Shown here: positions 1 through 58,649 of the stretch, piece after piece | Layout: every line of letters starts with the position of its first letter | How positions within the stretch are numbered: position 1 is the stretch's first letter | Origin: Heterobasidion occidentale | Lineage: Eukaryota; Basidiomycota; Agaricomycetes; Russulales; Bondarzewiaceae | DNA length: 64,000 nt | Assembly: GCA_039111635.1 (NCBI GenBank) | Contig: JBCAQO010000007.1 | Coordinates: 1,488,001-1,552,000, forward strand | Direction: 5' to 3' | Translations under genes and position numbers: made by a program | Notes under the pieces: generated by a model | Told to the model about the DNA's origin: nothing | The model's database searches: none | Seen by the model: the letters and a program-made list of their open reading frames with translations, nothing else

Positions 1-564
1 TAGGCTTCGATATACCTGCTGGGCGCTGTTCGAGGTTGCGTAGGCAGGAAGTCTGTCTCCAGGGTGCCCACACCATCCACCCTCTGGCCCCAGTCCGCGA
101 TAGTATGGGGAGGCGGGAGGTGACAGGGAGGAGGTTGGGACTCTAACACTGGTGGATGAAATCATGTGTCAGTCTTGATGTCTCCCATGCCACAGCGTGC
201 GAGGACAAACTTACGATCTGGGAAGCCTTGAAGGATCGTGTGCTTACCACGATGCTTGCTCTGTCTTGGCGATAACGCCGGATCAATATTGCAATGGGCA
301 AGGACGAGGAGAAGGAAGGTGTGCTAAGGTTCTACAAGAGGCGTCAGGGAGGTGTGCAATATGCGACAACTAAGATCAAACACACCTTGAGAGCGGGCCT
401 CGATTCGAGATGAGCTAAGCCTCCTGCGGAGATGGCAAGTCCGCGAACGAGAAGCGCGTGGCGTCGGAGGCGTCGGAGGCCAACAGTATGTCCGACCCCG
501 CAGGCGACAGAGCATTGCGGACCCCTTGGACGATCTCCGTGGCGAGTGTATCGAAGTCAAACAT
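1..564 (-). pseudogene. EGN/QGP family member G (partial, frameshifted)
   Basis: On the minus strand an ATG at 564 opens MFDFDTLATEIVQGVR, followed by an Ala/Ser/Asp-rich stretch and FADLPS. The same stretch occurs on the plus strand at about 1835-2415 (member E), including both intron positions and the downstream PPPHTIADW-like segment. The left edge ends inside the PQ(A/T)xPSR block shared with members C, D and E. Relative to E one base is missing near 415, giving a stop right after the FADLPS segment, and the second exon contains further stops. I see a decaying copy cut by the window edge. A consensus error could account for the first break but not for all of them. Function unknown; members A, B and D carry C2H2 fingers further downstream, which would lie outside the window here. 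Confidence 0.55.
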
Positions 565-1812
565 TTGAAGAGTGGGAGGCGAAAGTATGAGGGTAAGTCT
601 CGAGGTGGGTTGGTGTCAGACAATTCGGGTGGGGAGTTGAGCATCATCATCAGCTCGCGCCCCCTCCTTTATAGACTTCTGACCCGCTCATGAACAAAGG
701 AACCTCCGTCTCCACTGTCGTTGGTGGCAAATGCTGTGAGCAACAACGGCATCCGCTTCCGAGGTCCAGCCTCCGCCGACGCGTCACTCTTGTTCTCGTG
801 GTGGAGAAGCGCTGTGCCACCGCCTCAAGCCATTTAATTTCAGGATCTCTCGATCGTCCGGCGCCCATGACCTTTGTAATGAGGCAATCTCGCTTGTGCC
901 TCTGGACACGACGACCAATGGGACGCATCACGACTCTCAGGGTGTTCGCCACCGGTTCCGTTCTGAGGAAGACGGAGGGCTTCTTTAGGTCTCTCGGTCA
1001 ACGGGGCTCTTCGACTGCTCTTCGGGGTCCCCTCGTCATGATCACCCGAATACGTATGTGTACGTGTACGTACGCGTCTTGTCATCTCCCTCTGGACGCT
1101 TGATCCAGGCAATGGCCCGACATTCCGCGTTGTTCCCTCCTCGAAGGCTTGTTCTCACGCGTGATTGCGTGCAGCAACCTCGCCTCATCGCAGACCGATC
1201 ATCCCGCCTCGACTGACGCCCCAGTGAGAACGACATACCCCCCCTTCACCACACCGAGGACAACGATGCCACCCTGAATCATAGCTGCGAGGGTGGACGT
1301 TCGAAGCCAGGTGCGATCCACAGGCCGTAGTAGAGTGAAGTTAGGGTCATGGGCGGCGAGATATAGGCCCTGTACGAGGTGTGCCAGTCACGATAAGTCC
1401 AGTCGTTCACATTACTGTCCCAACGCCAAATACTACTGCACAAAATATGAGTCGTGTTTGTTCTGTTCAGCAAAACCCTCTCAGATGCTGCACTCAGATT
1501 GCGAGCGCGCCTCCAGCTACAACCGCCGTTCGAAAGTTGTATGATTGTTTTTTTCCACGTCCAGGTCATTCCCGTCGGTGCCATGTCAGGCGGAGAGGAA
1601 ATCGCTCGAAGAAATTTGACAGTCAGCACGATGACAAGACACCGCGGAGGCTTCGCGGCATCACTATTTGATACACACTCCTGACGCCGCCGTAATATTT
1701 GGGACAAAAAAACCCGTCAACTGTTCAACGAGAAACTCGAATTTTCGGTGCAGAGGCACACTTCGGTTGAGGACAACGGTCCCTTATATAGCATAATGTC
1801 CAGTATTATCAG
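565..1812. other. Spacer between divergent copies G and E
   Basis: About 1.2 kb between the two head-to-head copies. Open frames here overlap one another on both strands, have no recognisable domain and no consistent splice signals. A TATATAG string near 1783-1789 lies about 25 bases before the E homology begins and may be its promoter element. Nothing else seen. Confidence 0.4.
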
Positions 1813-2802
1813 GTGAATAAACCGCGCAATACCGTTGAACTCGCGACGGAGATCGTTCAAGGGGTGCGCGGTGCGCCTGCGGGGTCCGATATCCCACCGG
1901 CCTCCGACGCCTCCGACACCAAGGTCTCCTCCGACGCTTCCGCTGCTGCCCTCCTCTCCGAGTTCGCGGACTTGCCGTCTGCACAGGGAGCTCCAGCTGA
2001 TCTCGAATGGAAGCCCGCTTGCAAGGTATGTTTGCCATCAGTCGTCGCATATCGGACACCGCCCTGATGCATCTTGTAGAATCCCAGCACTCCGTCCTTC
2101 TCCTCAATGTTGACCATCGCAACATTGACCAACGCGATATCGCCAAGGCAGAGCAAGCATCGTGGCAAGCACGCGATCCCGTTCTCAAGCCTCCCAGATC
2201 GTAAGTTTGTCCTCATCCGCTGTGGCATGAGAGACCTCGTGACTGACGCATGATTTCATCCACCAGTGCTAGATTCCCAGCCTCCTCCCTATCCCCTCCC
2301 GCCTCCCCATACCATTGCGGACTGGTGCGAGAGGGTGGATGGTGTGGGCACTCTGGAGACAGACTCTCCACCTGCGCAGCCTCAAGCAGCGCCCAGCAGG
2401 ATTATCGGAGCCAGTGGAGACACCGAGGGCAATGCCCTCGCCACGAACAACTCAACAACAAGAACTCCCAACGTCGAGGAGTTCCCCGCAGTCGGACCAG
2501 TTCCCGTCACTGTACAGCCGTCGGCACAAGGACATCTAACCCCGAAGCGACATCGGCCCCCCGCTCAGACGCCATATATGGCAGCCAAACACAGTGGCCA
2601 GTCCTTCTCTATCCCGCGGTTGACAGCTACGGGTTGTCCACCCACGCTGACACCGAGTCCGACCCCGACGAGCCATCGCGGTATTCTACATACGCCGTGC
2701 ACGAGTACCGATCCCAGTAGCCAGTCCTTCTCTAAACCCGGTATTCGCACAGCCCATCGCCCAGCGCTTTGCGACGATACCGCTGTCCAGCCTGAAGCCT
2801 GA
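1813..2802 (+). pseudogene. EGN/QGP family member E (finger-less, start lost)
   Basis: Reads VELATEIVQGVR, then SDASDTKVSSDAS, FADLPSAQGA and a donor near 2025 (AAG|GTATG). A middle exon follows, with acceptor near 2081 and donor near 2202, then a third exon from about 2267 with PPPHTIADW, PPAQPQAAPSRIIGAS, GDTEGNALATNN and VEEFPAVGPVPV. The last blocks match member D (PPAQPQAGPSRLIEAS, SEGIALNPHN, KEEFQATSPAPANV). No in-frame ATG precedes the homology (GTG at 1813; an upstream ATG at 1795 meets a stop). The frame ends at 2802 without C2H2 fingers, whereas A, B and D each have two. Short imperfect repeats occupy the place where fingers would be. Either a truncated relic or a finger-less member that uses an undetected upstream exon. 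Function unknown. Confidence 0.45.
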
Positions 2803-4685: not shown

Positions 4686-6733
4686 TCAGGGTACGGCTAT
4701 CCTCCATTTGATTTTTTCAGGGCCATGGCGGTCAAACGAATGTTTCACCTGCAACATTGGAGTCAGTTATGAATCAACGTAGGCAGCGAGATAACGTACT
4801 GCTGCTCTCCAGTCCATGGGGTCAGTCCATCCTTTCGAGTAGCATTTCACACACATAGTCTGACACTGAGTCTGTCCATACCCTCCCAAGTCGTACGATT
4901 TGGATCGACCCCGCACGCGTGCATCAATTCTAAGACCCTTTCCGGCTCTCGGCAAACCTTGAGATCATCCTGCCATTGCGTCCGCTTGCATGCAATCTTT
5001 GCTGCGTGTTCATACACAGAACCGTCGATTGCGAGGTCACTTTTTCAGACTTTCGAGGTGTGTAGTCCTCGCCGTGGCAACAGTGTGCGAGAGTTCATCA
5101 TATGATGATAGTACTGCGTAGCAACAGTTCATGCAGGTCAAGATCACAGCAGGATGATCGAGCGTGCCAAGCGCAGCGAAGATAGGAAGGAGGATGTAAT
5201 TCTCCCGAGCAATGATAGCTGAGATCTCATTTTTCCATTGAGCCCAGATGGAGGGAAGAAACTCGCGCAGACGAGCCATGGCGGCCGAAGTGACACTTTT
5301 GTCCAGTGGCAAATCAAGTACCTCTCGAACCTGTGGCATCAGTATGATGTCGATGTATCTGTTTGGATGAATATTGGGCAGCTCATCTTTCATCTCGTCC
5401 AGGATGGAAATAAGGGCGGAGAATCGACCGATGAGCGCATTTTTGCGTTTGTGACTCTCAATGTTTGACATGATTTCGCCTATGTGATCGGAAAGTGGTT
5501 GCTCTATTTTTATCCATTCTGATATTCTTGTCAGGTTATAATGATGAAGAGTGATCGTTACTGGAGCGAACCTGAGGTTGTGAATTCTTGGGGGAGTTGG
5601 ACGACTTGGTGACAGATGAGAGCCCGTCGGACGTCAGGGATTGAAAGTTGTTTCTTAAATCCCGCTCTCTCAAGGCGGTCGAGAATTCTGTGAGCAAAGG
5701 TAAAGAATCTCAGAATGAGTGTATAGCAATCACGAAGCCACTGACTGTGGTATCCTCCGGCTTCGAATCTGTGCATGATCCTTTTCTCTTTGCTTCTCTA
5801 GTGCTTCTTCCTCTTTTTTCTTCCTCTTCAGGGCCCGAACGAAGCGGTGTCTTGCCCAAGATATATACTCCGGTTTATCCTGCAAGCCCGTTAGCTACTA
5901 TCTCAACTAAGATACAACGCACAAACCCATTGGCCGGTGTCCTGTCTCTTCATCAAAAGCTGTTCTAAATGGTCGTTTTGGTCATCCTCGGAGAGTGACG
6001 GAAGTGTTTCTCGAAGAGCGAAAATAGTAGCTTGTACCATCCCTTGCAAGCGGCAGAACCTTTCTGCCCGCTATATTGTGGTAGAAGGTGGCGATGTCGT
6101 CCATCGCATCTTTCCATGATTCTCCATCGAACTCCTTGGGAGGCCGCGGCTTGCTCTTATAATATCTGTACGACACCGTTAGATCCTCGCAGGCCTAGTG
6201 GCGCTAGGTCCTGTTGAATCTTACTCACAAATTGTCTTTACATCGGGAACAGAGTCGCCTTCGATCTTGCCATATGATCTGGGCTAGACCTTCGTCGTCG
6301 CAGTTCTACATGCGTCAACCGAATGAGTCAACAGCGTGAAAGTGCTCGATGTTCGATCACGCTGACCTCGCACCATGGCTCAAACATCAAGCTAGTATAT
6401 CGAGCCTCACACATGTTGCTAGGGCATTCCGGCAGGCCACCTATGTTTTTGATCACAGATTTCCATAACGATATTGTCCGTCGACTCATGAGAGTGTTAC
6501 GGAGCCACTTGTTACTCTGTGCTACATGTAGTAAGTCAATTGGTCGCGCGTATGAGAGTATCTAGATGTTGGGATATTAGCCAATACTGAAACTGAGCTC
6601 TAGAGATAATAAACCTCAAGTAGTATCTCGATAGGAAACACGGATAGGCTTGAGTGGCGTTTGTGACTGCAGCTTGGAAGTCTGTATAGGTAGGATTGGA
6701 GCCCTTTTTCTTCTTAATTCTTCGAGGAGCCAT
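4686..6733 (-). pseudogene. F-box protein paralogue, decayed
   Basis: A minus-strand copy of the F-box gene at 59794-61979. It starts with MAPRRIKKKKG (intact copy MALRKSKRVK) at 6733. In order it keeps LPECPSNMCEARYTSLMFE, the NCDDEG exon, YYKSKPRPPKEFD, the LSIPDVRRALICHQV segment and a long exon with KNALIGRFSALISILDEM, HPNRYIDIILMPQVREVLD and LGTLDHPAV. It ends with MDWRAA at the same splice point as the intact copy's MDWRTA, then a short last exon to TGA at 4686. Breaks: one base short after KGWYK near 6028 (the continuing frame reads IFALRETLPSLSEDD, matching the intact gene), another in the SHxCHG segment near 5085, and a further shift before GSVYEHAAKIACKRT. The F-box itself (intact copy PLEILFEIFSYVDAVDLL) is poorly preserved around 6550-6650. 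Most likely a pseudogene. Confidence 0.7.
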
Positions 6734-8119: not shown

Positions 8120-9248
8120 TTATAGATGCCTCTTCTGGTGTCGTTGAAGCGCATCTTTGCGACCAAACTTCCGCTCACACCCCACTTCCGTGCATACCCA
8201 GCTCTTTTCGGGCCTTGGCTCTGGCCTGCGTCCTTCCCTCGCTGCCGCCTCTTCCAACAGTCTGAAGTGTCTGTCAGACCTGAAGTGGCGATCTCGCTCG
8301 TTCACCCGGCCAAACCCTTGCCAACAGCTGAAGCACTTGTACTTCGCTGTCTCGAATGGTGTCTGATTCGGGCGCCCGTTGTCCAGCTCTCCGGAGCTCG
8401 TCGACTGCGATTTGGATGGCCCTTGTCTTAACACGAGTACAGACTCGGGCACTAGATCGTCTTCGGAGACTTCTTCTTCGGAGTCGGCGGTGTTCGATGT
8501 GCTAGTGTAAATGGCGAGGGCATTTCCCTCATTGCTGGCGGGTGTCCCATAGGGTCCGCCTTGCCTTGGCACTGATGGAGCCACCCATGTAGACTCCAAA
8601 CCCTTGGCATACTTGTGCGATGCCCTGTTGTCGCAGCGGTCTGGCTCCTCCGTTCGTCTCTTCCGACCCGCGATGGCTGGAGGCGGAATGCTCATCTCGC
8701 GCTCTAGCGCGATGGCTTGAAATTGTTGAATGTGGTGAGTACAACATTCAGTGCGAAGTAGGTGCCAGAGACGCAAGTTGTTGTAAAGTTGTTGTCAGGG
8801 CATGGGGAGGGGTGCGATGTTACGTCAGGGAAGGAGACAGGGGTAGGGATACACGCGGTGGTCAGGCGCAGGTGAGTTTTGATAATGCGATAATAGATCA
8901 GAGTCACACCTAGGTTAAACGATCTGAACGCACCGTTGTGGTAGCCCCACATCAGCCGCTGGCAGTACTTGCCAGGTGGTCACTGGCACGGAAATGTCAT
9001 AGATGCTGGTGACATCGTAGGGCTTGGAGGCGGCTCGACCCTGCTGACAGTGAGTATCATGCATGCTCATGTACAATTATGTGCCATGCACTTACATGCT
9101 CCTCTTGCGGAGGCGATGATTGGTCTTCCGTAGGCAGGTTTGCCTCGCTTGAGGCGTTCGGCTCATCAGTTGTAATAGTGACACCCATGTCGTTGAAAAA
9201 TTCGTCGTGGAACCAGAATCTCAATGGGTCGTTCGCGGGGAGAGTCAC
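8120..9248 (-). CDS. EGN/QGP family C2H2 zinc-finger protein A
   Basis: Probable nucleic-acid-binding protein with two C-terminal C2H2 fingers: C-x2-C-x12-H-x5-H (CFSC...HFRSDRH) then C-x4-C-x12-H-x3-H (CTEVGC...HQKRH), ending three residues later at TAA (8120-8122). The large last exon also carries a basic GRKRRTEEP patch, the EGNALA block, a Glu/Asp/Ser-rich acidic stretch and a QGPSKSQ block, all shared with B and D. The first recognised exon (from about 9248) reads LPANDPLRFWFHDEFF and aligns with B's DDALREWFEESFF. It has no in-frame ATG (GTG at 9248) but is preceded by a usable acceptor (GATCAG), so the true start is probably in an upstream exon. A middle exon lies at about 8940-9050 (SKPYDVTSIYDIS). 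A transcription-factor role is inference; fingers and linker blocks are seen directly. Confidence 0.7.
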
Positions 9249-11550: not shown

Positions 11551-12915
11551 ATGTCACCAGTAAACGTGCGCAGCTATAGACCACCCCATGACGACGCCCT
11601 GAGGGAGTGGTTCGAAGAGAGTTTCTTTGACAGATTCTCCGAAGACGAGGACAGTGGGACTGACCCAGTCCTTGAGCCTTCACAAGAGACAATCGGTAGC
11701 AATGAGATAATCATCCTTGGCACGGCTGTAACTCAGCACAAAGAATCCGGAAATGTGAGTACACTTCAAGCGATTCCGTATCATCAGCACACTTACCACT
11801 GAACAGCGTCAGGACGCCACTATGGCCAATGAGTTGATAAGCCTCGCCGCAAGTCCGGGCACCGGCAACAGCTATCACTCCTCCCCTGTACCAACTTTGC
11901 TAGCCTGTGTAGATCCGCACTGTGTGGTACAGGGTCTTCGCGATGCAAGTGAGTTGGAATTTGATCAACTCATTACGATATATACTTATGAACCATCATA
12001 TCATTGCCTTCGCCCACGGTCCTCCCTCCACGGTCCTCCCTCGAAACATCTTGGACATCGTCGCGCACATGACTGTGGAACTCGCACTCAGCTCCGCTGT
12101 CACCACCGCACCCGACAAACCTTTCCGCAGTGATCGTGCGGAAGACAGAAAGGAACTCTTTGCCACTATCAACTGCATGGACAAAGAGAAAGGCTCAGGA
12201 GTTCGGCCGCTTGGACAGTAGGTCGTTCCCCAGGCGCGTGCGGAGATCGACGAGGGGCATGGTGGATTTTGCCCCTGCACCAACAAACATCCAACGAAGC
12301 GTGCTTCCCGGAGCCTCCATCGACCATGAGGGTAATGCCCTCACCCAGAACAAACAGAAATCAAGCACGATCGGCTTCGAGGACAAGGTTCCCCGAGGCC
12401 AACTCGTCCCCGACCACGTCCGCATGTCAGGACAAGGGCCGCTACCATCGCAGCCCACGGCGGTCACGCAAACAGACAACGGCGAGCCCAAGCAGACGCG
12501 GTCCAAGACTGGCAAGTACAAGTGTGACGTCTGTGATGACGAGTTTGGCAGAAAGTACGAATGGCGGCAGCACTTCGTAACCGACAGGCATCTCAAGCAA
12601 GCGGCTCTGGGGACAGACGAGGAGGCACAGCCAAAGCCGAGGCCATTCGCGTGCATGAAGGGGGGCTGCACAGAGTGCTACGGGCGGAAGGACGAGGTCT
12701 TGAGACATGTGCGACGTAGGCATCCAGAGGTCAAGCTGCCGCCGAAGAGGGTGCGATCTCGCAAGGGCAAACGAGGTGCGTCGAAGCTTTATATGTGCCA
12801 TCCCTCCCTAAGATGCACGCCGCACGCCGTGTTCTTATCGATCGTACACTCACTCACCTTCCTCAGACCCATGACATCCTATAGCCCTCTCTCCTTCTCG
12901 CTCGGATCAATGTAG
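11551..12915 (+). CDS. EGN/QGP family C2H2 zinc-finger protein B
   Basis: ATG at 11551 (MSPVNVRSYRPP). Exon 1 carries DDALREWFEESFFDRF then an acidic stretch, with a donor after KESGN at about 11754. Exon 2 (from about 11809) reads RQDATMANELISLAAS to QGLRDA. The large exon from about 12130 has KRKAQEFGR, a DHEGNAL block, QLVPDHVRMSGQGPLPSQ and two fingers: C-x2-C-x12-H-x5-H (CDVC...HFVTDRH) and C-x4-C-x12-H-x4-H (CMKGGC...HVRRRH), followed by a basic tail PPKRVRSRKGKRG that looks like a nuclear localisation signal. The frame then runs to TAG at 12913; a GTGCGTC donor right after the basic tail (about 12775) suggests the real C-terminus is in a further short exon. Nuclear DNA binding is inferred from the fingers and basic tail. 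Confidence 0.7.
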
Positions 12916-22380: not shown

Positions 22381-22823
22381 GTGTTATTCGAAGTTCCAAC
22401 TTATGAGCATGAACGCCGGTAAGGAATACAGTGATATCATAGAAGGTCAGAGATGGTGGTAGTGCAGGCTAGCAGCGCGCAGGTTCACAATTATTTGACC
22501 ACACCTGACGCTACAGAAGTTCGGGTCGAAGCAACTATCATTATGCGTTTTCGTGTCATGTTGGCCGATATCGCATGTTCACTGCGTTCTTTATTTGTGT
22601 GTACAGACCGCGTCACCGCAAGTCTCTGCCCGCCTTCATCTTTTCGTCTTTACAGAGGATAGCCAAATACAAGAATGTCATCTCTCTCACTTGGCTTCCC
22701 GGCAGCCGAACCGGGATTTGATGTGGGTCCTCGTGTTTCAGTGCATGAAGCTGTGGTTGATCAGCATGACTTCGTAAGACTCATGACTTGGATAATCGGA
22801 TCTGTCCGTTGATCATGACTTCA

Positions 22824-22829
22824 TATAAA
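22824..22829 (+). promoter_or_regulatory. TATA element of hydrolase copy 1
   Basis: TATAAA whose first T lies exactly 41 bases before the ATG at 22865; the same element and spacing recur in the other two copies. Confidence 0.6.
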
Positions 22830-22864
22830 GGCGTATACATATCTGAAGAAATCCCATACCAAAG

Positions 22865-24292
22865 ATGTCCCAATACGCTCACCTCTCCACCCTCGATCCT
22901 GAGTATGCTGCTGTCAGAGCGAGCATGCCAGTTACCAGCGCTATGCAGACGCAAACTGATATCCCTACAATACGTGCCACGGGTGTAAAGATGCGAGCAG
23001 CACGCCCGGCGCCCAGTCTTCCTGCAGGTATGGACATGTATGAAAGACGAGGGCACAAGACAATGATGAGAGTTCCATCCAGATCATGACTATCGCATCG
23101 AGAACCGTCAGATAAGCGTTGAGGGAGGTGATATTACAGTAAGGTGCTATGTGCCGACGCTAGTCGCGAACGAGATATTTCCGCTGTTAGTTTGGTATCA
23201 TGGCGGAGGTGCGTCCACCTCACTATTGTGGACGGATGGCCTTGTATTGAATGATAATGATCAAGGATGGGTGGTCGGAGACCTTGACATGGACGACAGC
23301 AACCTGCGGATTGTATGCGTTGAGAGGCGCATCTCGATTGTGAGCGTCGACTACAGGTGGGTAACAATCTTCAAGTGCAGAGTTTGGAAGAGCTAAGCTT
23401 TACCCTGTGCATATATAGATTGGCTCCAGAATTTCCGTTCCCGGCAGGTGTCAACGACAGCTACACTGCCCTCAAATGGGTCTGTACCTATGTTTATCGA
23501 CAGCGCAGTACTCAACTCAATCGAATCTTCAGGCAGCCGAAAACGCCGAGACACTTTTGGCTTCCCCCTCAAAAGGTTTCCTGGTCGGAGGGGCTTCAGC
23601 CGGTGGGAACCTTGCAGCAGCTATGACACTTCGAGCGCGAGACGATGCATTCTTCACTACCCGGCCGCTTACGGGCCAACTACTGCAGTATCCAGTTGTG
23701 TGCCACCCCGATGCGTATCCTGAGAGGTATATACCAGCTGGTTGTCTGTCCTTGTGCGCTGCCGAAGCTGACTTTCACAACGAAAGATATAAAAGTGAAC
23801 TCCTATCTATAGAACAGAACAAAGACGCGCCGGTCATCGGTAGAAGGGAGGTATACTGGTGTATCAGTGCGTACCAGATGTTCTTGTCTGGCTATCTAAC
23901 ATGTAATATTGTTCTATGAACTCGCATAGGTCTGCTGAAACCGCCAGCAACTGATCCTGATTTTTCACCCCTTCTGGCGACATCGCATGCCGGATTGCCT
24001 CCAGCGTGCGTGCAGGTGTGCGGGCTGGATCCCCTGCGCGACGAAGGGATACTCTACGAGAAATTCCTTAAGGAGCAAGGCGTCAAGACTAAGTTGCACA
24101 TGTACGTCATTTTGTTTTGTTTTTACCTCCCTTCGAGAAAACAACTGATGGGCAATGATGTGCAGATATCCGGGCGTACCGCACGGAGTGAATGCGATCT
24201 TCTCTGAGCTCAAGGCATCGAAGCAATTTGAGAATGACTTTAGGGAAGCAATCGGGTGGATGATCGGCCTCTCCGCTCATCAGGTCGAATAG
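22865..24292 (+). CDS. Alpha/beta hydrolase (HSL-type), tandem copy 1
   Basis: Probable carboxylesterase/lipase-like enzyme of the alpha/beta-hydrolase fold-3 group. Exons in order: MSQYAHLSTLDPEYAAVR; DHDYRIENRQISVEGGDI to VWYHGGG, the oxyanion-hole motif; DDSNLRIVCVERRISIVS; LAPEFPFPAGVNDSYTAL; a nucleophile elbow GGASAGGNLAAA (G-x-S-A-G-G); QLLQYPVVCHPDAYPER; KDAPVIGRREVYWC; CGLDPLRDEG with the catalytic Asp; and YPGVPHGVNAIF with the catalytic His, ending TAG at 24290-24292. About eight introns of 50-65 nt fit with GT-AG ends; the intron after TALKW has an unusual GTCTGT donor that is kept in copy 3. No signal peptide, so probably intracellular. Substrate unknown; fungal members of this group act on short-chain esters or in secondary metabolism. 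The frame is intact by my reading. Confidence 0.82.
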
Positions 24293-24965: not shown

Positions 24966-24971
24966 TATAAA
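24966..24971 (+). promoter_or_regulatory. TATA element of hydrolase copy 2
   Basis: TATAAA, first T 41 bases before the ATG at 25007, as in copies 1 and 3. Confidence 0.55.
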
Positions 24972-25006
24972 TGCGTATACATAACTGAAGAGATTCCATA
25001 CCGAAG

Positions 25007-26912: not shown

Positions 26913-26918
26913 TATAAA
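26913..26918 (+). promoter_or_regulatory. TATA element of hydrolase copy 3
   Basis: TATAAA, first T 41 bases before the ATG at 26954, as in copies 1 and 2. Confidence 0.55.
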
Positions 26919-26953
26919 TGAGTATACGTGATTCAAGAAATCCCATACGAAAG

Positions 26954-28603: not shown

Positions 28604-29860
<1,257 letters not shown>

Positions 29861-31798: not shown

Positions 31799-32466
31799 TT
31801 ACAGGTGCGACGCCCAGGTTGTAGGGGACGACGTCTGCGGGGGTACAGGCCCTTGACTAAACATTTGTCCGGTGGTGGAAGCTAGGCTGTCGAGATGGTT
31901 TCCTGGCCGATGCTGTAAATTCTCGTTGTAGCCTTCGCTTTTGCAGGCTCCTACGAGCCCGGTTGGCTCTGCTTGCGGTTGCATAGGTAGAGAGGCCCTC
32001 TCTGCTGTTCGCATATTACCCGCCCTTCTGCTTTTTGAAGAATACCACTCCGCACTGGCATCCTCCATTTTCTGCTTCTTGCCCACATTTGAAGAAATTG
32101 AGGCTGACTTGACAGGGACTGGTGATACGTATTTGGCGGTGGCAGGGATTGGTAAAGTGTGCGTCACAACCTCTTCATTTGCTGATAATGAAAGCGGCTC
32201 ATTGGCAAAGTTATGACAGGAGACTTACTAGATGGAGCCGGAGGCGGAGCGGCTTCTTGGGAGGTGATTTTCGCGCCAGATGGTAATGCCTTAATGGAAG
32301 GCGAGGCGCCAGATCGGGAGATAGAAGTACTTGGAAGCCCGGAGTCATAGGTGCGGTACAGGCAATTTTCGCCAGAGTCTTCGGGTGGCATGAGGTTGAG
32401 TAAATGGGTGCATATTAGAGAGATGAGCGCCCAGACGTTGGCGATCGGCTGGTCAGAAGGAGGCAT
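31799..32466 (-). CDS. EGN/QGP family member C (no fingers found)
   Basis: ATG at 32466 starts MPPSDQPIANVWALIS, resembling member D's MSSSDRPFADWYEIIV. Exon 1 ends in an Ala/Pro/Ser-rich stretch with a GTAAGT donor near 32224. Exon 2 from about 32166 matches D block by block: LPIPATA, GKKQKMEDASAEWYSSKS (D: GTKRKADEGSDDWNRSKS), MRTAERASLPMQPQAEP and GQMFSQGPVPPQ (D: RLWGQGPFPTQ). The frame ends at 31799 right after the QGP block with no finger, and none is visible downstream. Either the C-terminal half was lost, or a GTAACC donor just before the stop leads to an exon I cannot find. Conserved basic KKQK/SKSRR clusters suggest a nuclear protein; the function is unknown. Confidence 0.5.
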
Positions 32467-44825: not shown

Positions 44826-46554
44826 ATGGTCAGCGCAGTAAGTGCAGCTGCAACTCAGTGAGCGAATATCTGCATCTTCAGTTTTCTAAATTAAAGATTG
44901 ACTTCGAGCTTCTTCCAATTCCGCGTTCAATACTCCACTATCGGTGAGTGGTTCTCATAAATGGTTCGTAGCGCTGCTTTTCCCACGAGACTTTCCTCAG
45001 CTCTCCTCTGGTATGACTACATCCTAACCTTTCCCGACGAGGTCAAGTACATGTGGAGAAACAAAAAATGGAGACTTTCAACATTCCTCTACATAGCATG
45101 TCGCTATGCATTGCCTGCCAATATCCTTTATCTATTGGCAATAGCTCACAAACTCGGTAGCAGGGTAAGCTTATATCAAGGATGTTTGAATGAACTGTAT
45201 CCTCATACAATTACACAGTGAGCGATAGCATTAGGCGCGGAACAGTATTGACCTGAGATATGCGCTTTAGCTGTGATAGATGGTACAAGATCATCGGGGC
45301 CATCAGCGTCATTGGCAGGGCAGCGGTCATCAGTGAGTTTCGTGTCGGACGATCTGATTTCAAGGGTTCATAGACGACCGCACAGCGGTCTTCACAATGC
45401 GAACGTACGCTGTATGCGCTCAAAACCGCCTCATTCTTTACGTCTTAGGGGCGATCGGGCTGACATGTGTTGTCCTTGATTGTGTGGGTTCCTTTCATTG
45501 TTTGGATGGCTTAATTACAACGCGCATCCTCCAGCTTCATGTGCCTGGCCTACGATGTCAGGTCTCTTCCAGCATTAAGATGTAAGTGTCTTCCAATTCG
45601 CCGAACACTTATTTGCTCATTTGTTCCTTCAGTGGTAGGGAATCTCACGGACTTTCGGCTCTGCCTTCATCTTGCTCAACCGCTCGTCAAACAGCTAACA
45701 CACTTTTATCCATCCTCATCTGCGTCTTCGAATCCGTGGCAGCCATCTTTACTGTCATTAGGAGTTTCCAAGCCATCCGAGTACGCGGCAAAGGCAAGCT
45801 ACAGAAGCACACGCTTCATTATCTCTTGTTGGAACAAGGTGAGCTCCGTATTATGTCTGCGAATTTGGCTGGCTTTATTTGTGAATAACCATACGCGTGT
45901 AGGTGTACTCTATTTTTGGTGAACATCACGCCACCTTCGAGTTTCACTTTATGATGAATTGGGTATTCTTATAGCGGCGTATCTTTCTTTACCATAGCTT
46001 CTGTGGTTGTGGGATTTGTAAGTCTTAGATTTCGCAATCTGACAGCGTTCATTGACTTAATACGCATGGATAGCGGTCGCCTGTAAAAATTTCTCTTCCA
46101 TGCGATTCAGTAGCCCTGGAGTTGATGGTTCCGTGCGCAGGGTGGCTCGTTTCAACACATCCTCAATGCGTTTACCCTCCCGTACGCCATGACCTCATTC
46201 GAATGCTCATACTCTCACTATATTCGATCTATCTATTTGGTTTCCAGACTGTGTGGTCTTCTCACCGCTCGGTTCCTACTTCACATTCGCGCTTACGATA
46301 CCAAGAAATTCTACATCTCTCGCGATGGACGTGCCCTGGAGGCGCACACGCTCTCCATCTTTCAAGCTGTCGGTGGGCGCGTGGTCTCCGACTTTGGAGA
46401 AGACCCTGTTACGCGAGCGGAATTCGATAACGAAGCAGCGCCTGAGCATATCGCTATGTGCGATGCCACGCTTCAGCGCGGCAGAGGTGAATATATCGAA
46501 GAGCAAGATCGAGGTTTTGTTCATGGTTCTTCGCCTTTGGTAACTACTGTATGA
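44826..46554 (+). CDS. DUF6533-type seven-helix membrane protein, copy 1
   Basis: Member of the large Agaricomycete family of predicted seven-helix proteins. The start MVSAVSAAATHF (ATG at 44826) is followed by FQFRVQYSTIALLWYDYILT, the DUF6533 core FPDEVKYMWRNKKWRLSTFL and CRYALPANILYLLAIAHKL, CDRWYKIIGAISVIGRAAVI, TMRTYAVCAQNRLILYVLG and LTCVVLDC. NTLLSILICVFESVAAIFTV, SFFTIASVVVGF and GLLTARFLLHIRAYD follow, then a soluble Glu-rich tail ending SSPLVTTV (TGA at 46552-46554). About ten introns fit with GT-AG ends and no frame break. TATAAG at 44775-44780 lies about 50 bases before the ATG. Role unknown; the fold is receptor-like by prediction only. Confidence 0.78.
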
Positions 46555-46839
46555 TTCGGTTGTTGTGAAATCAGACTGAATGATAGGACCCTCGAAATCT
46601 GTTGTCTATCTTGTGATACTTGTGGCTTACTCTCAGCTACTGCGCCAGTTGAGCGAATTTGTAGAATATTCACCTGCATGATGTTGCCATGTCATCTTTC
46701 CGTGTTGGATACGTTGTAGATTTTATGTTTGACAGAGCGTCTGGGGGAATATTAAGGTTAATCGGCTTTAGTTCGGGATCGGTTTAGTCCGTGGCGTTGT
46801 TGATCACAATTCCTCCAAGACACTCTTACAGAGTCTTAC

Positions 46840-48030
46840 CTTCTTATCGTGAGCTCTACTGAATGAATTTCAAATTGAGGCACTTAGCTTCGCTGGATTT
46901 GAATTCTTGACTTTGAACTCCCATTGCAAAAACACTGGAGCTAATAGTCGTTGAACGGCTCGGACTCACTCCACTCCTGGGAAGATAGTGATTCACGCGA
47001 CTACGACACTTGGTCTTGTTAATCCCGCTCATCGCCGGAGCTAGAGACCAAATCGAATGGAGGCGGGTCTCGGGGTCAACTTTGGCGGGGCAGAAATTGT
47101 CTAGGCGTCTTATGGTGTTTGCGGTGAGATATCTCCCGCTGTCATCTGTGGTCTTACCATTCCTATTGCTGGCTAGGAATCGTTCATCTCATAGATCTCT
47201 GTCAGGCTCTGTCACACTTATCATCGTTTCCCATGCCCTGTGGGGTTCGACGCAGGCACACACTCTTTTCATAGCCCGTAACAATGGTGGTGGTCTCTTT
47301 GATCATCATGCTGCTGGAACTCGTTGTCGCCACAGCTCCCTGAGGAAGTTCTTGCTTTGGATTGACTCGGCTATGATCATCTCGTGCGATACTATCATTC
47401 ATCGAAGGGGAACTGCGCAACAAACATGTGTTGCTGGCTCCATCATGATCCTGCTGTGGTCAGCTTCTATCGTCTGGTTATCTCTTCCACCCATAGAGGC
47501 TCTCCCCGCTGACATCACCAGTACGAGCGTGAAGCTTTGTCAACGCAAAGGCATTGATGGAGACGCCGAGGTCCTCTGCGAGAGAAAGTCATTGGTCCGT
47601 CGACTTGCAGGATGGGGTCTGTCTTGCCATCTCGATCTGTGATGCTATGCGTAGCTCACAATGATGAACTTGCGTTGCAACGTTGCGTAAGGCAATATTT
47701 GGTGCATGCCCCATGTAGTCTGATGTTTCTTTTGGTCGATGTGTTTCGATGCGTGTGAGTGCAGCGTCTGTTTTCTCAATATAGAATTGTGGATAAAGGA
47801 ATTCACGGGCCAGACGATCTGGATTTGGGTGGCATATGATCGTACTCACGGCGAAGCCAGGTCTGAAACAAAGCTTGTCCGCAAACGTTCCTCGTGGCCT
47901 GCCCGCGATTGGCTCTTCTTAAAGCGCAGGCGTCCATGGCCTTAGGTATCTCATGGACCAGGAGTCAGCCGCGCGCTTTGTGCGAACATGGAGCGTTGTC
48001 TGGCCATCTCAGCAGCTGATGATGACATCT
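46840..48030. repeat. Duplicated tail segment R1
   Basis: Related to 50240-51435. Begins with a string around TTGAACTCCCATT at 46914 and ends near the GCGAACATGG string at 47980. A long plus-strand frame (47010-47642) starts with TTG and is broken in the sister copy, so I do not call it a gene. On the minus strand both copies share an ATG (47936 here) with MDA..., RANRG and NVCGQALF, but substitutions between copies are not mainly silent. Probably non-coding or decayed. Confidence 0.6.
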
Positions 48031-48096
48031 CTGATTCGACCATTTCAGCGCCGCATATTACTTCCCCATTCTCTTGAGGGGCGAGTCACGCCTGTC

Positions 48097-48103
48097 TATA
48101 AAA
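48097..48103 (+). promoter_or_regulatory. TATA box of DUF6533 copy 2
   Basis: TATAAAA 49 bases upstream of the ATG at 48146, in a CT-rich context. Copy 1 has the weaker TATAAG at the matching place. Confidence 0.55.
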
Positions 48104-48145
48104 CCCTTCTACTCTCCAAATGGCATCGTACACTTCTTCTTCAAA

Positions 48146-49934
48146 ATGCCGAGTGCAGTCAGCACAGCTGCAACACAGTGAGTGCACAAAACCTTCCCCC
48201 TCAGTCTCATTTAACTCCTTCCCTATCAAGCTTCCTCCAGTTTCGAATCCAATATTCCAGCATCGGTAAGCTCTGCGTTGTTATCGTCGACCCTCTCTCC
48301 TTCTCATGGGTCACAATATAGCTCTTCTATGGTATGACTATGGCCTGACGTTCCCGGAGGAGGTCAGGTACATGTGGAGGTCCAAAGAATGGAAGGTGTC
48401 GACTTTCCTCTACATTTTCTGCCGCTATGCGCTGCCAGCAAATCTGCTTTATCTGCTCGCTATTGCGAATAAGTTGGGTAGTAGGGTACGTCATTCCACT
48501 TACTTATCGCAATCATCGCACACGCTAAAGTCAATTCTTACCCATGCATAGCACGTTTTTATCTTTTGCGGTGATCTTAGACCAATCAAATGATGCCTCT
48601 CTTATCAACAGCTGTGATACATGGTACAAAATCATCGGTGCTATCAGTGTCGTCGGCAGGGCTTCGGTCATCAGCAAGTGCTCCTGCCATTGTACATCTC
48701 CCCGATGCTGAACTCGATTTTGCAGCCGTCTTCGCGATGAGAACTTATGCCGTCTGCGCCCAGAGCAAGCTGGTCTTGTATGGCCTGGGAGCCATTGGGC
48801 TCACATGTGTGGTTCTCGACTGTGTCAGTAGCTTCGCCGTGTCTGATCCTTCTGCTACTACTGATGTCGAGCCCTTATGACCTCAGTTACACGTTCCAGG
48901 GCTGCGATGCCATGGATCTTCCAGCATACAAATGTACGGCTTGTCATCTCTTTGTAATATTTAGCCATCTGATTTGCGCTTGCTAGCGGTATGGATTGGT
49001 CTTCATAGCATTGATATCTCCTTGGTGACCATCTTGAGTTCTCTGATCACTACAGCGAACACCCTGCTTTCTATCCTCGTCTGTGTCTTCGAGTCTATCG
49101 CAACTGCACTAACCGTCTTCCGGAGTGTCCAAGCTCTGCGCGCGCAAGGTCAGAGCCGGAATAAGAAGAATACATTCATTACTTAGTGCTCGAACAGGGT
49201 GTGCTCTATTTTGGGTGAGTACTCGACGTTCTTGCCACTGATATCTCGAGCATCAACCGATGACCGTTCTGGTATCTAGTGTGGTATCGTTATTCACGAT
49301 TGCGGCTGTGATCCTTAACTTTGTATGTTTTGTCTGTCAATCATTCTATGTACTGCTAACGTATCCTAAATCTCTAGCGTGCACCCGTGCGTAACCTTGC
49401 TTGAAGTGCTGGCCAGTATGCTGAACAGACCCTGTTCAATCCGTAGGGTGGCTTCTTTCAACGCCTACTGAACGCATTTACACTCCCGTAAGCCTCTGTC
49501 AGGCCCGCATCCTTGACTAGACTAAATTGCATGCATGCATTGGATTCTCAATCAGGGTCTCTGGTCTTCTCACTGCGCGCTTCCTCCTCCACATTCGTGC
49601 ATACACCGAAAATAGCAGTGCTTCACTGTCTAAAACAGGTGGTCAAGCGCGCGAACAGCACACACTCTCCGCATTCCAAGCAGTGCGTGCAAGGGTTGTG
49701 GATGAATTCGGAGAGGACCCTGTTGCAAGGGCTGAGCAAGATCAGGCGGAGGAAGGGGATACAGGGCTTGGTATAATAGAGGTGGACAGAGAAAGCGGTA
49801 GATGGATTGAAAGGAACGGTGGGCTGACCGGGGCAGCGTTTGAGGGCGGTAAGAGTGATGATCTCATGGAGGGTTCGAGCGCGGGCAGAACTTGGAGCGA
49901 GAGTCGGAACGAGATCCAGACTCATGATGTCTAA
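48146..49934 (+). CDS. DUF6533-type seven-helix membrane protein, copy 2
   Basis: Tandem paralogue of the 44826 gene. MPSAVSTAATHF (ATG at 48146), then LQFRIQYSSIALLWYDYGLT, FPEEVRYMWRSKEWKVSTFL, CRYALPANLLYLLAIANKL, CDTWYKIIGAISVVGRASVI, AMRTYAVCAQSKLVLYGLG, NTLLSILVCVFESIATALTV, SLFTIAAVILNF and SGLLTARFLLHIRAYTENS. The hydrophilic tail ends SRNEIQTHDV, TAA at 49932-49934. One intron starts with GC (ATCA|GCAAGT near 48674) where copy 1 has GT. Near 49170/49171 one base is missing: the frame would stop after NTFIT, but with one base added it reads YIHYLVLEQGVLYFG as the family expects. Copy 2 is therefore either slightly damaged or carries a consensus error. Role unknown. Confidence 0.72.
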
Positions 49935-50239
49935 ATGAGGCCTCAGGCCACATACTTGATATCCAGTCGTAGCGAATTTACCTCGCATGTGGTTTGTACA
50001 GCGTTGTCTCTTGTCGTCTAGCCTTGATCGATTGATCACTGAGGGAGCCAAACGCGACGCGCAAGGAGCACTGCAGGTGTGGCAGTCCTCATGTGCTTGT
50101 GGAATGGCGTGAGGGGCTGTGAGGTAGTCTCCGTTGCTGACCCTATCACAGAAGACAGTCGTTCTGTGTATAGCTGTGAGGGGGCCTCGTGAGCAAGCGG
50201 AGCGAGCCTCGCCTCGGCGCGCCCGGCAACTCCGGGTAC

Positions 50240-51435
50240 TCCATGAATTTCAAATTCAGGGACCTTGCCTCGCTGAATTTGAACTTTCTGTTTTGAACTC
50301 CCATTACAAAACCACTGGCGCTAGAGTCGTTGAACGGCTCAGACTCACTCCTTCCCTGAGTGACTACTGATTCTCACAACCACGGCAATTACTCTTGTTA
50401 ACTACCCTTATCATGGATCTAGAAACCAAATGGAGGTGGAATCCCGGTTTGATAGTCAACTCTGGTGGGGCAGAAGCTGTCGCGACTCTAGACGTCATAT
50501 GGTGTTTGCGGTGAGGTATGCCCTGCCGTCGTTTGTGATCTTACCATTCCTATCATTGGTGAGGAATTTTTACATCTCACAAAATCGTCTCAGGCTCTGT
50601 CACAGCTATCATCGTTTCTTTTGCAACTACCGCTCCAAGGCGCTCTATGATTCCCCTCTGGGGTTCGCCTGATGCACTCACCTTCTATACCTCGTAACGG
50701 TGGTGGTGGTGGAAATCGTTGTCACTGCAGCTCCCTGAGGAAGATGTTGATTTTGGATTGACTCGGCTCTGATCATCTCGTGCGATATTATCATTCACTG
50801 AAGGGGCCTGTGCAACAGATGTGTTTCTCTCGCACTATGCTCCATCATGATTCTGCTGTGGTGAGCTTTTATTGTCTGATTATCTCTTTCACCCGTAGAG
50901 GCTTTCCCCGCTGACCACATCACCAGGAGCGTGAAGCTTTGTCAACGAAAAGCCATTGACCGAGTCGCCAAGGTCCTCTGTGAGACAGAATCATTGGTCC
51001 ATAGACTTACAGGATGGGGTCTGTATCACATATCAATCTATGATGCCATGCATAACTCACTTAACATGCTAAATTTGCATTGCAACGTTGCGTAAGACAA
51101 TCTCTTGTGCATGTTCCTGATGATTCTTCTGGTCGACATGTTCTGATGTGTGAGAGTGCAGCGTCTGTTTTCTCAATATAGAACTGCGGAGTAAAGATCA
51201 TACGGGCCAGGTGCTCTGGTTTCGGTGACATATGATCGTACCCACGACGAAGCCAGTTCCGAAACAACGCTTGTCCGCAAACGTTCCCCAAAGCCCGCCC
51301 ACGATTGGCTCTGCTTATAATGTATGCGTCCATGGCCTTGAGAATCTCACGGACCAGGAGTTAGCCGCGCGCTTTGTGCGAACATGGAGTATTATATCGC
51401 CCGTCGCGATCAAGCTCATTGAGGAAGCGAACTGA
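50240..51435. repeat. Duplicated tail segment R2
   Basis: Sister of R1 (46840-48030), similar along its length with small insertions and deletions. It carries the same minus-strand ATG region (MDA..., RANRG, NVCGQALF, then PQFYIEKTDAALS from 51333 down), which stays open longer here than in R1. No promoter or splice pattern supports a gene. The short stretch between the end of copy 2 and R2 (49935-50239) holds nothing recognised. Confidence 0.6.
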
Positions 51436-51745: not shown

Positions 51746-52360
51746 ATGTATGCTTTAATCACTGATTGTCCTCGTCTAGATTCTCAGACCAGTCAATGCG
51801 GCAGACCATGGTCATTGAAGACAAGCCCTGTTGAAGAAGACCTTGTTGAGGACCTCGTAGACAACTCCTTTGATAGTGATGATTGTTTGTCAGGCCATGG
51901 CTCCAAACCTCGTAATCAATGTCCGCGAGACGGACCTGAAAGATGTCCTAGGAAGAAGAGATCCGTGAGATTCATAGTACATGAGCACGAACCAGACAGG
52001 AACGGAGCAGCTATGAACTATATAAGTTCAGTACACATCTCCCACTGTCCGCAGAGGCAGAGAATTTATTTGATCAGAAGGCGACAACTCACTCTAAGAG
52101 TCATGAACAATCAGAACATTGTCCGGCCACTTCAGCTGGTCGGCGGGCAAATCGAGGTCGATGTGCTAGTGAACATATCAGGTCCGTGTGTCGTGTGGGG
52201 ACAAGGGCCTTTGCCATCGCAGCTGACTGGCACAGTACAAGAGGACAGTTCTCGGGCCGCAAGAGCATGGCAATTCCTTCAGGAAAGATGTTGTCAGGAA
52301 ACAAAACTGAAAGCAACACTTCACAACCGACTAGTCAAGAATGCCTGTAGGTCAAATTAG
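51746..52360 (+). CDS. Diverged EGN/QGP family member F
   Basis: An ATG at 51746 opens a 204-codon frame. Its only clear family block is CVVWGQGPLPSQL (B: VRMSGQGPLPSQP; D: RLWGQGPFPTQ). Upstream there is an acidic patch SPVEEDLVEDLVDNSFDS and a basic RCPRKKRSVRF patch, in the order found in other members. The EGNAL block and the C2H2 fingers are missing, and the protein stops about 45 residues after the QGP block. Whether this is expressed is uncertain; it may be a relic or part of a gene whose other exons I cannot see. The 51436-51745 stretch upstream holds nothing recognised. Confidence 0.4.
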   Translation: MYALITDCPRLDSQTSQCGRPWSLKTSPVEEDLVEDLVDNSFDSDDCLSGHGSKPRNQCPRDGPERCPRKKRSVRFIVHEHEPDRNGAAMNYISSVHISHCPQRQRIYLIRRRQLTLRVMNNQNIVRPLQLVGGQIEVDVLVNISGPCVVWGQGPLPSQLTGTVQEDSSRAARAWQFLQERCCQETKLKATLHNRLVKNACRSN

Positions 52361-56578: not shown

Positions 56579-57097
56579 GACTGTTATGTAGAGAGAGGGA
56601 GAGAATTCTCGATGAGCACCGTAGGAGAGCACTCGGTGAGATCAGACAAACAGCAATGCAGTCGATGGAGACCGTGGGAATCAGTCTCACTAGGACCTAC
56701 TTGTCGGCACGCCTGACTTCCTCCTCTCACCTCGTCGCGGCCATCTTTTTCGCTCTGTTAAGTTCGCTCCACTCTGCAAAAGAAGGTTCCAGATCGCGCG
56801 AGGGGCTAAGCAGAAAATGAGAAATAATCAACAAATCATGTAAGTAACATACATTGCAACGAAGTCTGTATCGTAGTGGTATCGTAAACAAAGTCCCCTC
56901 CATTGATTAGACAGATCATACAATACTTGTCAAAATCCTCGTCGAGGATACTAAGCCGCGCGCTTCCTCCGCGAACAATCGTATCGATCCGAGGGAGAAA
57001 CTGGAAGAGACAAGTGGGAACATGAGCTATCTGAGACAGCTATCGATGAAGATCACAATGAGCCACCAAAGGACCATTGACCAGTTCCTCTTCGCCT
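56579..57097. other. Spacer
   Basis: About 500 bases between two minus-strand genes. No supported gene or element. Confidence 0.35.
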
Positions 57098-58649
57098 TCA
57101 CCTTGCATTGTCCCCATTCTCACCTCCTGCGTCGCCTTGCCACCCCTCACCCGCCATGGCGCCTCCTTGCCCTCCAATTCCGTGCGCTGTCTTCCTGTGT
57201 GTGACCAAGCTCGAGCGATTCGAGTATTCCTTGCCACACTCAGGATGATCGCAGGGGAATTCTTTCGGCGGCAACGTTGCGTACCCATTCAGCAACAGCA
57301 CGCGCTTCGTGTGTGTCTGCCTTCGTTCATGCGTGGTGAGTTCTCTTATCGTGCGGAAGCCGAGAATGCAGATATGGCAGTTGAACGGGCCGGCATTGTA
57401 CGGTGTCTGGCCTTTACGCAATGGAACGGGAGGGAAGAGGTATGCCCGTTCTCGAGCCACGAGCAGCATCTCAGGAGTGATGCCAATCATCGAGACTGAC
57501 GGGAAAGAGTGCGTGGCAGGATACAATGTTGATGGGGAAGGAAGTGATATCGGTGGTGCACTTATCCCATGGATATCGTATTCTGGCCCGTTCACAGATC
57601 GAATCGTCGTGGCAGAGGATGACTGGTTGGGGTCTGGTGTCGAAAGTGCACTGCGCGGGGATGGCATTGGAGCGGAGGGGACGGTCATCTGGTCAATGTG
57701 AGAGGGCTGCGTGGCTGCGCAAGGCGCAGAAGACCCTGTCGAGAGAGAAGAAACCGACGTTGAAAGCGGAGACAGCGTCGAAGCAGAGAACGAAGTCGGT
57801 TGGCCGAGAACCGAGGTCTGCGTTGGGAAAGGCCCTTGGCCCCACAGCCGTACATTGGCGGGAGCGGGACTAGTGGCCTGGAATTCCTCCTTGAAACTGG
57901 AACCTCCTGTTGTAATGTTGTGTGGATTGAGGGCAATGCCCTCGCTATCTTCCGAGGCTTCGATGAGCCTGCTAGGTCCCGCTTGTGGTTGGGCAGGCGG
58001 ATGGACCCTTTCCGCCACGCGCATGGCTTTCAACCTACTGCTTTTTGAACGATTCCAGTCATCACTGCCCTCGTCCGCTTTCCGTTTCGTTCCCGCAATG
58101 CTCGGAGCCGCATCTGATTCCCTAGGGAGCAGAGAGGAAGCGGTGGCAGGGGTGGATAGAGGGTTGGGTGCCACCTCTGTGCATCCTGATCAAGAATTGG
58201 GCGTCAGCGTCGGTGTGGTACTAATCACAGTGGTGGCAAGTGGAAACTGGCACCAGGATCGGGAATTCACCTAGTGCGCTTGGGATCGGCAGTGGAACAG
58301 CTGCTCGAGGCGAGGGTACCTCACTTGGCCTCGGCGAGGCCTTTGCGGAGGTGAATAGAGATGTGGTGGCAGGGAGCTCTGTACTTGGGTGTGGCATGTC
58401 CTCTGCAGGCTTGTCCTAGTTTCTTCGAGAGGTCAGTGCTGCACTCGCTATCCTCAACAGTATGATACTTACCTCTGAGTTTGTGGCAGGCGGGATCGGA
58501 CTCGCAACATTGCCTGCAACTGGTGTCGGAGTTGGAGGCACGGTGGCGGCACAAGTAGAGGGTTCGGGTGGTATCTGACTGCTTAACCAATCACATCCCC
58601 AGACGATAATCTCGTACCAGTCGGCGAAGGGTCTGTCAGAGGATGACAT
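57098..58649 (-). CDS. EGN/QGP family C2H2 zinc-finger protein D
   Basis: Best preserved family member here. Exon 1 (ATG at 58649) reads MSSSDRPFADWYEIIVWG and a Pro/Thr-rich stretch to NSE, then GTAAGT. An exon DKPAEDMPHPSTELPA follows, then, after a junction I could not fix (about 58175-58330), the long exon with GTKRKADEGSDDWNRSKS, RVAERVHPPAQPQAGPSRL, SEGIALNPHN and RLWGQGPFP. A Ser/Pro/Thr-rich region of about 150 residues leads to two C2H2 fingers: C-x2-C-x12-H-x5-H (CHIC...HERRQTH, starting 93 residues before the end) and C-x4-C-x12-H-x4-H (CDHPEC...HRKTAH). A Gly-rich tail ends GENGDNAR, TGA at 57098. Probably a nuclear DNA- or RNA-binding protein; targets unknown. An F-box gene of the family seen broken at 4.7-6.7 kb lies next to it. 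Confidence 0.75.

What the first reader, a model, noticed from the sequence alone, without database searches (positions are those of the whole stretch)
1..58649. Seven-member dispersed family with conserved linker blocks and optional C2H2 fingers
Members G, E, A, B, C, F and D (1-564, 1813-2802, 8120-9248, 11551-12915, 31799-32466, 51746-52360, 57098-58649) share an ordered set of blocks. These are an N-terminal D-x-P/A-L/F-x-x-W-F/Y patch (A, B, D, loosely C), a basic K-R/K-x-E/D-D patch, PQAxPSRxIxAS (C, D, E and the left edge of G), E-G-N/I-A-L (A, B, D, E) and (W/S)GQGPxPSQ (A, B, C, D, F). Only A, B and D keep two fingers of the form C-x2-C-x12-H-x5-H and C-x4-C-x12-H-x3-4-H. I know no named family with these linker blocks. 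Seven loci in 64 kb on both strands points to a recent lineage-specific expansion, possibly of DNA-binding regulators.
Basis: partly seen in the sequence, partly recalled or inferred. Interest (0 to 1): 0.75.

Follow-up and report, generated by a model that had tools for sequence, protein, structure and literature searches.

The report
Zinc-finger genes with embedded hairpin tag
A basidiomycete fungus carries dozens of related zinc-finger genes, and inside their protein-coding sequence nearly all that were examined keep the same stretch of about 135 letters, with a small hairpin, whose DNA letters are preserved better than the protein they spell, as if it were a shared control tag.

Summary
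The family is real. In the own genome (45 Mb, basidiomycete near Heterobasidion) protein searches give 68 merged places, many in clusters, some probably haplotig copies. No Pfam family covers the linker; only C2H2-type models hit, at the fingers.

The surprise: EGNAL and GQGPxPSQ are the two ends of one ~44-codon block conserved as nucleotides rather than as protein. When codon positions 1/2 differ between subfamilies the third base still agrees in 51% of cases (29% expected); fingers and flanks lie near expectation. EGNAL is written as a hairpin, GAGGGC-AAT-GCCCTC: the five outer pairs form in 34 of 34 sequences, with two double changes and seven G-U cells. A more open A-rich strand follows. 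Fingerless members keep it too.

Best reading: an RNA element in the coding sequence through which one trans-factor controls the family. RNA over DNA is favoured, not proven. Whether other genes carry the element is open: the genome-wide pattern search did not complete.

The parts
1..161 (-). Member G: the part of its open frame (G000:C7:1487397-1488161) inside the window; an exon-1-like peptide lies upstream at about 415-564. The conserved element of G lies almost wholly left of the window.
   Evidence: L061:1730-1893
2254..2799 (+). Member E: fingerless family ORF, 182 aa, shorter than G's (a stop and a change of frame against G before the QTPY end).
2425..2567 (+). Nucleotide-conserved element in E; hairpin GAGGGC-AAT-GCCCTC at 2425-2439.
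8123..8794 (-). Member A: ORF with two C2H2 fingers (8267-8335 and 8126-8194).
8387..8530 (-). Nucleotide-conserved element in A; hairpin at 8516-8530 (sixth pair missing).
11551..11799 (+). Probable exon 1 of B: acidic, aromatic N-terminus (MSPVNVRSYRPPHDDALREWFEESFFDRF...); frame shown to its stop, splice site not mapped.
12073..12912 (+). Member B: main ORF, 280 aa, fingers at 12523-12591 and 12652-12723.
12328..12471 (+). Nucleotide-conserved element in B; hairpin at 12328-12342.
31799..32224 (-). Member C: decayed copy related to D, no fingers found; element remnant 31817-31954 without the hairpin.
52167..52240 (+). Member F: fragment holding only about the last 45-50 nt of the element; a possible finger-1 shred follows in another frame (E 0.72, weak).
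57101..58189 (-). Member D: main ORF, 363 aa, fingers at 57311-57379 and 57182-57253.
57800..57943 (-). Nucleotide-conserved element in D; hairpin at 57929-57943.
58416..58649 (-). Probable exon 1 of D: MSSSDRPFADWYEIIVWGCDWL..., shown to its stop; splice site not mapped.

Best explanation
A mostly clustered family of two-finger C2H2 proteins, probably nuclear regulators, in a basidiomycete near Heterobasidion. Their mRNAs share a cis-element of about 135 nt inside the coding sequence: a 5-6 bp hairpin with a triloop (GAGGGC-AAU-GCCCUC), then a more open A-rich strand (about ACAWCAAGAAC), then conserved UGU and CAAGGGC patches. Supported by the statistics here: the block is selected as nucleotides, and the hairpin is kept beyond what the encoded residues require. 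Inferred: the sense RNA is what is read. Inferred further: one trans-factor (an RNA-binding protein or a small RNA) recognises it and sets stability or translation of the paralogs together. Fingerless copies keep the tag and may act as decoys.
For: Third base equal when positions 1/2 differ: block 0.511 against null 0.289 (z 25); finger 1 0.349/0.302, finger 2 0.335/0.306, KR patch 0.360/0.281, 25 aa after the block 0.314/0.294 (33, 31, 24, 18 and 33 sequences). It holds with one sequence per subfamily (16) and the block's own codon usage as null (0.497 against 0.290, largest of 1000 nulls 0.329) and without the hairpin codons (0.478). Between the C3 and C6 clusters third-base identity has one peak along the ORF, at the block (0.68-0.80; 0.24-0.63 elsewhere), while amino-acid identity in the middle of the block (0.45-0.58) is like that of other regions (up to 0.56); only the EGNAL end is higher, 0.73. 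Site rates are uneven (variance/mean 2.21; uniform-rate simulation 0.69). Hairpin: 170 of 170 cells of the five outer pairs are standard in 34 sequences; 34 of 34 stems complete, against a mean of 4.3 and a maximum of 12 in 2000 synonymous redraws. On 32 sequences the covariation score is reached by 1 of 500 shuffles and by no slid control (the tool warns that this is not a probability). Predicted hairpin probability 0.944 against 0.118 for recoded sequences of the same protein, above 0.9 in 29 of 33; the 23 nt from +18 to +40 more open, 0.742 against 0.554. All seven one-sided departures in the five outer pairs are C-to-T on the right arm (G-U in RNA) and both left-arm departures are matched on the right, which fits sense RNA better than a DNA dyad. 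The encoded block is predicted disordered (pLDDT 40-43, thin alignment).
Against: RNAalifold finds no consensus structure beyond the hairpin. Only two members have both sides changed in the five outer pairs; 7 of 34 lack the sixth pair; in one of 33 the hairpin scarcely forms in the fold calculation (minimum 0.015). Finger 1 and the KR patch also lie somewhat above their nulls (z 3.8 and 5.6), so shared ancestry adds a little elsewhere too. No Rfam family. One finger-bearing locus, L030, has no element in the 3.3 kb held. No expression, splicing or small-RNA data. Loci were found by protein similarity, partly to the block itself. Occurrence outside the family was not tested genome-wide.
Confidence: 0.5

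Rival explanations
1. The element acts as DNA: an enhancer or transcription-factor site inside the exon, the palindrome being a dyad site bound by a common factor or by the family's own fingers (autoregulation).
For: GAGGGC occurs as an inverted pair and AAGGGC/GAGGGC again near the 3' end. The two double changes also fit a symmetric DNA site. Protein-coding exons with enhancer activity are known (PMC3342275, start of abstract seen).
Against: One-sided departures in the five outer pairs are all C-to-T on one arm, 7 cells against 0 on the other; the cells are not all independent events. Base-contacting residues of the fingers differ between subfamilies while the element is fixed, and fingerless members keep it, which argues against self-binding.
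Confidence: 0.27
2. The block is a protein motif kept by selection on the peptide.
For: Frame open in 34 of 34 copies while none of the other five frames is open in all; gaps inside the 44 codons are of three bases; non-synonymous divergence is lower than in the region before it in all six groups.
Against: Third bases stay fixed where residues change: A in 16 of 16 at column 36 (Q, R, K, G), T in 15 of 16 at column 30 (A, T, H, S, N). dN/dS in the block is 0.5-1.3 because dS is depressed. The peptide is predicted disordered.
Confidence: 0.1
3. The block is simply younger than its surroundings, spread by gene conversion or as a cassette among paralogs.
For: Clusters do show homogenised stretches: fingers of C6 with dS 0.08, linker and fingers of C12/C40 with dS 0 and 0.04. 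In the block tree L058 and L062 do not sit with the groups I had put them in, and C6 has support of only 65.
Against: Uniform youth would give even rates; some sites have 0-1 change and others 10-16. The block tree keeps C3 (95), the C7:1.9 Mb trio (94) and C12/C40 (94) together.
Confidence: 0.08
4. A second gene overlaps the block in another frame or on the other strand.
For: Would also lower synonymous change.
Against: Every other frame has stops in many copies; the best is antisense frame 2, open in 20 of 34.
Confidence: 0.03

Closest known systems
C2H2 zinc-finger proteins (Pfam PF00096 and relatives)
   Same: Two fingers near the C-terminus; all 15 members of alignment A2 match PF00096 at E up to 0.5; D reaches the curated cut-off.
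   Different: Finger 1 has Hx5H in 22, Hx6H in 9 and Hx3H in 1 of 33 members, and Gln for the last His in 1; fingers are 6-26 residues apart in the 26 where both were counted; A and B are below the Pfam cut-off; the shared linker block is not in Pfam.
Lineage-expanded zinc-finger families: mammalian KRAB-ZFPs (PMC5363842) and insect ZAD-ZNFs (PMC7655104); listing and start of abstract seen
   Same: Lineage-specific expansion of zinc-finger genes.
   Different: No KRAB or ZAD match in Pfam for the members scanned; two fingers only; a nucleotide-conserved element in the coding sequence.
miR482/2118 targeting of plant resistance genes (PMC4700956, start of abstract seen)
   Same: A large gene family under negative control by one small-RNA family; that the site lies in conserved coding nucleotides is recalled, from no call.
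   Different: There a short small-RNA site (recalled); here ~135 nt with a hairpin, and no small RNA is known.
Basidiomycota C2H2 surveys (PMC12295980, abstract and passages seen; PMC11433517, listing and start of abstract)
   Same: Describe C2H2 families and clade-specific expansions in mushrooms.
   Different: 'Heterobasidion', 'Russul' and 'hairpin' do not occur in the main text of PMC12295980; no such linker element in what I saw.

Membership tests
C2H2 zinc finger (PF00096) | Two Cys and two His with Cx2-4Cx12Hx3-5H | tested here: met
   A, B, D in the window. Of 36 open frames examined, 33 have a finger-1 match; of these 23 have Hx3H or Hx5H, 9 have Hx6H, 1 ends in Gln. Finger 2 of the strict form in 26 of 33; 6 frames have a form with two extra residues.
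C2H2 zinc finger (PF00096) | Score at or over the curated cut-off | tested here: inconclusive
   Of 6 window proteins D is at the cut-off, A and B below it, C, E and F have no hit.
dsRNA-binding U1/jaz-type finger (PF12171) | Profile match of finger 1 | tested here: not met
   Spacing is alike (recalled), but only 2 of 15 members match at E up to 0.5, best 3.5e-5.
Structured RNA element | Base pairs kept through change on both sides | tested here: met
   Hairpin only: 3 of 6 pairs with double changes, 96.4% of cells paired in 32 sequences; nothing beyond the hairpin.
Structured RNA element | Known Rfam family | tested here: not met
   No match at gathering score in the window; around E's element only scores far below gathering, E 0.7 or more.
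Structured RNA element | Transcribed and folded in cells | not testable with these tools
   Needs RNA-seq and chemical probing.
Transcriptional activator | Acidic-hydrophobic N-terminus | tested here: inconclusive
   15 of 15 N-termini picked by eye have net charge -2 to -10 with 2-7 aromatics; start codons and splicing not confirmed.

The most novel reading that the evidence does not exclude
A new class of family-wide RNA tag: a hairpin plus exposed strand embedded in the coding sequence of dozens of lineage-restricted zinc-finger regulators, read in trans by one factor, with fingerless paralogs kept as decoys that titrate that factor.
Probability: 0.35. Interest if true: 0.82.

Novelty: new variant of a known kind. 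Interest (0 to 1): 0.66.

Why it matters
Large, fast-evolving regulator families need a way to be kept in check. Here a single nucleotide tag, preserved across subfamilies whose proteins have diverged strongly, would be such a handle, and it can be tested directly by synonymous recoding. It also warns that 'conserved linker motifs' in fast-evolving proteins can be nucleic-acid elements in disguise.

Tried and rejected
Linker as known domain: Pfam shows C2H2-type models at the fingers and otherwise only weak matches. Known RNA family: none. tRNA: none. Overlapping frame: rejected. Cassette or gene conversion: the site-rate test speaks against it; the tree is less clear than I first wrote, so I raised this rival from 0.07 to 0.08. 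Intron: argued against by the open frame in 34 of 34 and three-base gaps; not settled without transcripts. Self-recognition by the fingers: disfavoured. Structure search of the model of B (mean pLDDT 53.9): 177 matches at E up to 10, none at 0.001 or below; the 50 listed are C2H2 proteins, nearly all bound to DNA and one to RNA. Literature: searches listed nothing that I could recognise as this linker or element; this covers open-licence PMC papers only. One paper was opened, PMC12295980 (outline with abstract, and passages); the others are listing entries.

Rows dropped or treated apart: L055 and L057 were left out as near-copies of L056 (L053 was kept); 33 references were computed and 32 given (L057 left out). 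L010, L030 and L064 lacked the residue pattern at first; L010 and L064 were added later, L030 has no block. In one search the 15 peptides were picked by eye; for other members no clear one was seen, and A's N-terminal patch has no in-frame Met before it. In one search the coordinates come; those fall at the same places by eye.
Full report
Where it is. The window is G000:C7:1488001-1552000 of a 45.05 Mb assembly in 159 contigs. It lies among ordinary genes: of 20 other ORFs scanned, matches over the Pfam cut-off are abhydrolase_3, Rtt106-like, ferritin_2, BAG, RrnaAD and eIF2D winged helix. The host is a basidiomycete near Heterobasidion: the H. irregulare protein P0001 matches C3:156405-158408 in four pieces at 65-84% identity. 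The species is not known to me.

The observation. Exact patterns place EGNAL/EGIAL in E, A, B and D and two fingers in A, B and D. A protein profile built from 27 members outside the window recovers B, E, A and D at 47-66 bits; 20 shuffled windows reach 15.3 at most. G is the left-edge twin of E (84%). C and F fall to chance in the protein profile but are recovered as fragments by a nucleotide model (35 and 23.3 bits, E 3.4e-6 and 0.0015). C lost the hairpin; F keeps about the last 45-50 nt. So five members and two relics.

How large the family is. Small contigs (C30/C47, C31, C40, C91/C119) probably repeat chromosomal loci, distant entries may be other C2H2 genes, and near neighbours may have been merged, so this is a rough number. 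Clusters stand at C3:132-185 kb, C6:180-240 kb, C7:159-256 kb, C7:1.49-1.55 Mb, C7:1.91-1.93 Mb, C7:2.20-2.28 Mb, C12:723-775 kb and C13:1.23-1.29 Mb. In a database of 5.8 billion proteins three searches gave 5, 4 and 1 hits (in the first two only about 8000 candidates were scored): two named from H. irregulare, the rest unnamed contigs.

Anatomy. Where an exon 1 is clear it begins with an acidic, aromatic peptide (15 picked examples, net charge -2 to -10). The main frame then has a KR-rich patch in many members, the block, a linker of very variable length, a QTPY-like motif and two fingers. E, G, C13:1285530 and C12:723238 have no finger-1 match in the DNA held (for E, G and C13). A finger-bearing relative of A and B lies 2.5-3 kb from the fingerless gene on C12 and C13, and A lies about 5 kb from E and 8 kb from G (positions), as if such pairs had been duplicated together (inference).

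The element. Within clusters dS of the block is low: 0.26 against 1.10 before it in C6, 0.36 against 1.10 in C3, 0.11 against 1.00 in C7:1.9 Mb, 0.29 against 0.57 in C7:0.2 Mb, 0.10 against 0.34 in C12/C40, 0.08 against 0.23 in E/G. The fingers of C6 (0.08) and the linker and fingers of C12/C40 (0, 0.04) are lower still, a sign of local homogenisation there. Across 16 subfamilies third bases in the block agree where the first two differ: 0.511 against 0.289 expected. Four control regions lie at 0.314-0.360 against 0.281-0.306; finger 1 and the KR patch are somewhat above expectation (z 3.8, 5.6). One sequence per subfamily and the block's own codon usage give the same answer. Along the C3-C6 alignment there is one peak, at the block. 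At seven codon columns (2, 3, 11, 12, 30, 36, 42) the third base is the same in 14-16 of 16 subfamilies although three to seven different residues occur there.

The hairpin. EGNAL is spelled GAGGGCAATGCCCTC or a variant. In 34 sequences all 170 cells of the five outer pairs are standard: 163 Watson-Crick, 7 G-T. Two members changed both sides (L010 AAGGG/CCCTT, L049 GAGGA/TCCTC). The sixth pair holds in 27 of 34. Redrawing synonymous codons 2000 times gives 4.3 complete stems on average, 12 at most. This null ignores shared ancestry, but elsewhere third bases between subfamilies are close to random. On the alignment of 32 the covariation score is reached by 1 of 500 shuffles and by no slid control. 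In 33 folds the hairpin has mean probability 0.944 against 0.118 for recoded sequences (29 above 0.9, one at 0.015), and the strand from +18 to +40 is more open than in recoded sequences, 0.742 against 0.554. The block is not merely young: changes per site are overdispersed (2.21 against 0.69) and 16% of sites have at most one change against 1.5% simulated. The block tree keeps C3, the C7:1.9 Mb trio and C12/C40 together with support of 94-95, C6 with only 65, and places L058 and L062 apart from the groups I had assigned.

Specificity. Model R1 over 180.5 kb held here hits 34 distinct loci in full (87 bits or more) and the relics C and F; the remaining rows score 15.2 bits or less, E 0.098 or more. 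Of the 34 loci 31 were in the alignment that built the model; L053 and L055 are near-copies of a member of it, and L064, which was not in it, scores 128 bits. L030, which has fingers, has no element in the 3.3 kb held. Whether other gene families carry it is open: the genome-wide pattern search did not complete in 21 attempts.

Mechanism. The encoded stretch is predicted disordered (thin alignment of 12), so a nucleic-acid role is the economical reading. Stem departures on one side only are all C-to-T on the right arm and fit G-U pairs in the sense RNA; they are few and not all independent. Finger contact residues vary between subfamilies while the element is fixed, and fingerless copies keep it, so a shared external factor is likelier than the proteins themselves. 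This step is inference.

Verdict. Family: real, larger than supposed, and not simply recent. The interest lies in the element.

Noticed in passing
window 22545-28391: Three tandem copies with a period of about 2 kb; the one ORF tested, 23419-23919, matches abhydrolase_3.
   Followed up: no
window 44999-51401: Stretches of a ~3.4 kb segment occur twice, 74-93% alike; the one ORF tested, 46992-47642, has no Pfam match.
   Followed up: no
window 4952-6435 and 60114-61590: Distant inverted pair, 72-80% alike, near the two ends of the window; the two ORFs tested have no Pfam match.
   Followed up: no
G000:C6:179-240 kb (L009-L014): Six paralogs whose fingers are almost identical (94% of residues, dS 0.08) while the rest diverged strongly; looks like local gene conversion of the fingers.
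   Followed up: partly
G000 small contigs C40, C91, C119, C30, C47, C31: Close copies of loci on larger contigs or of each other, probably haplotigs.
   Followed up: no
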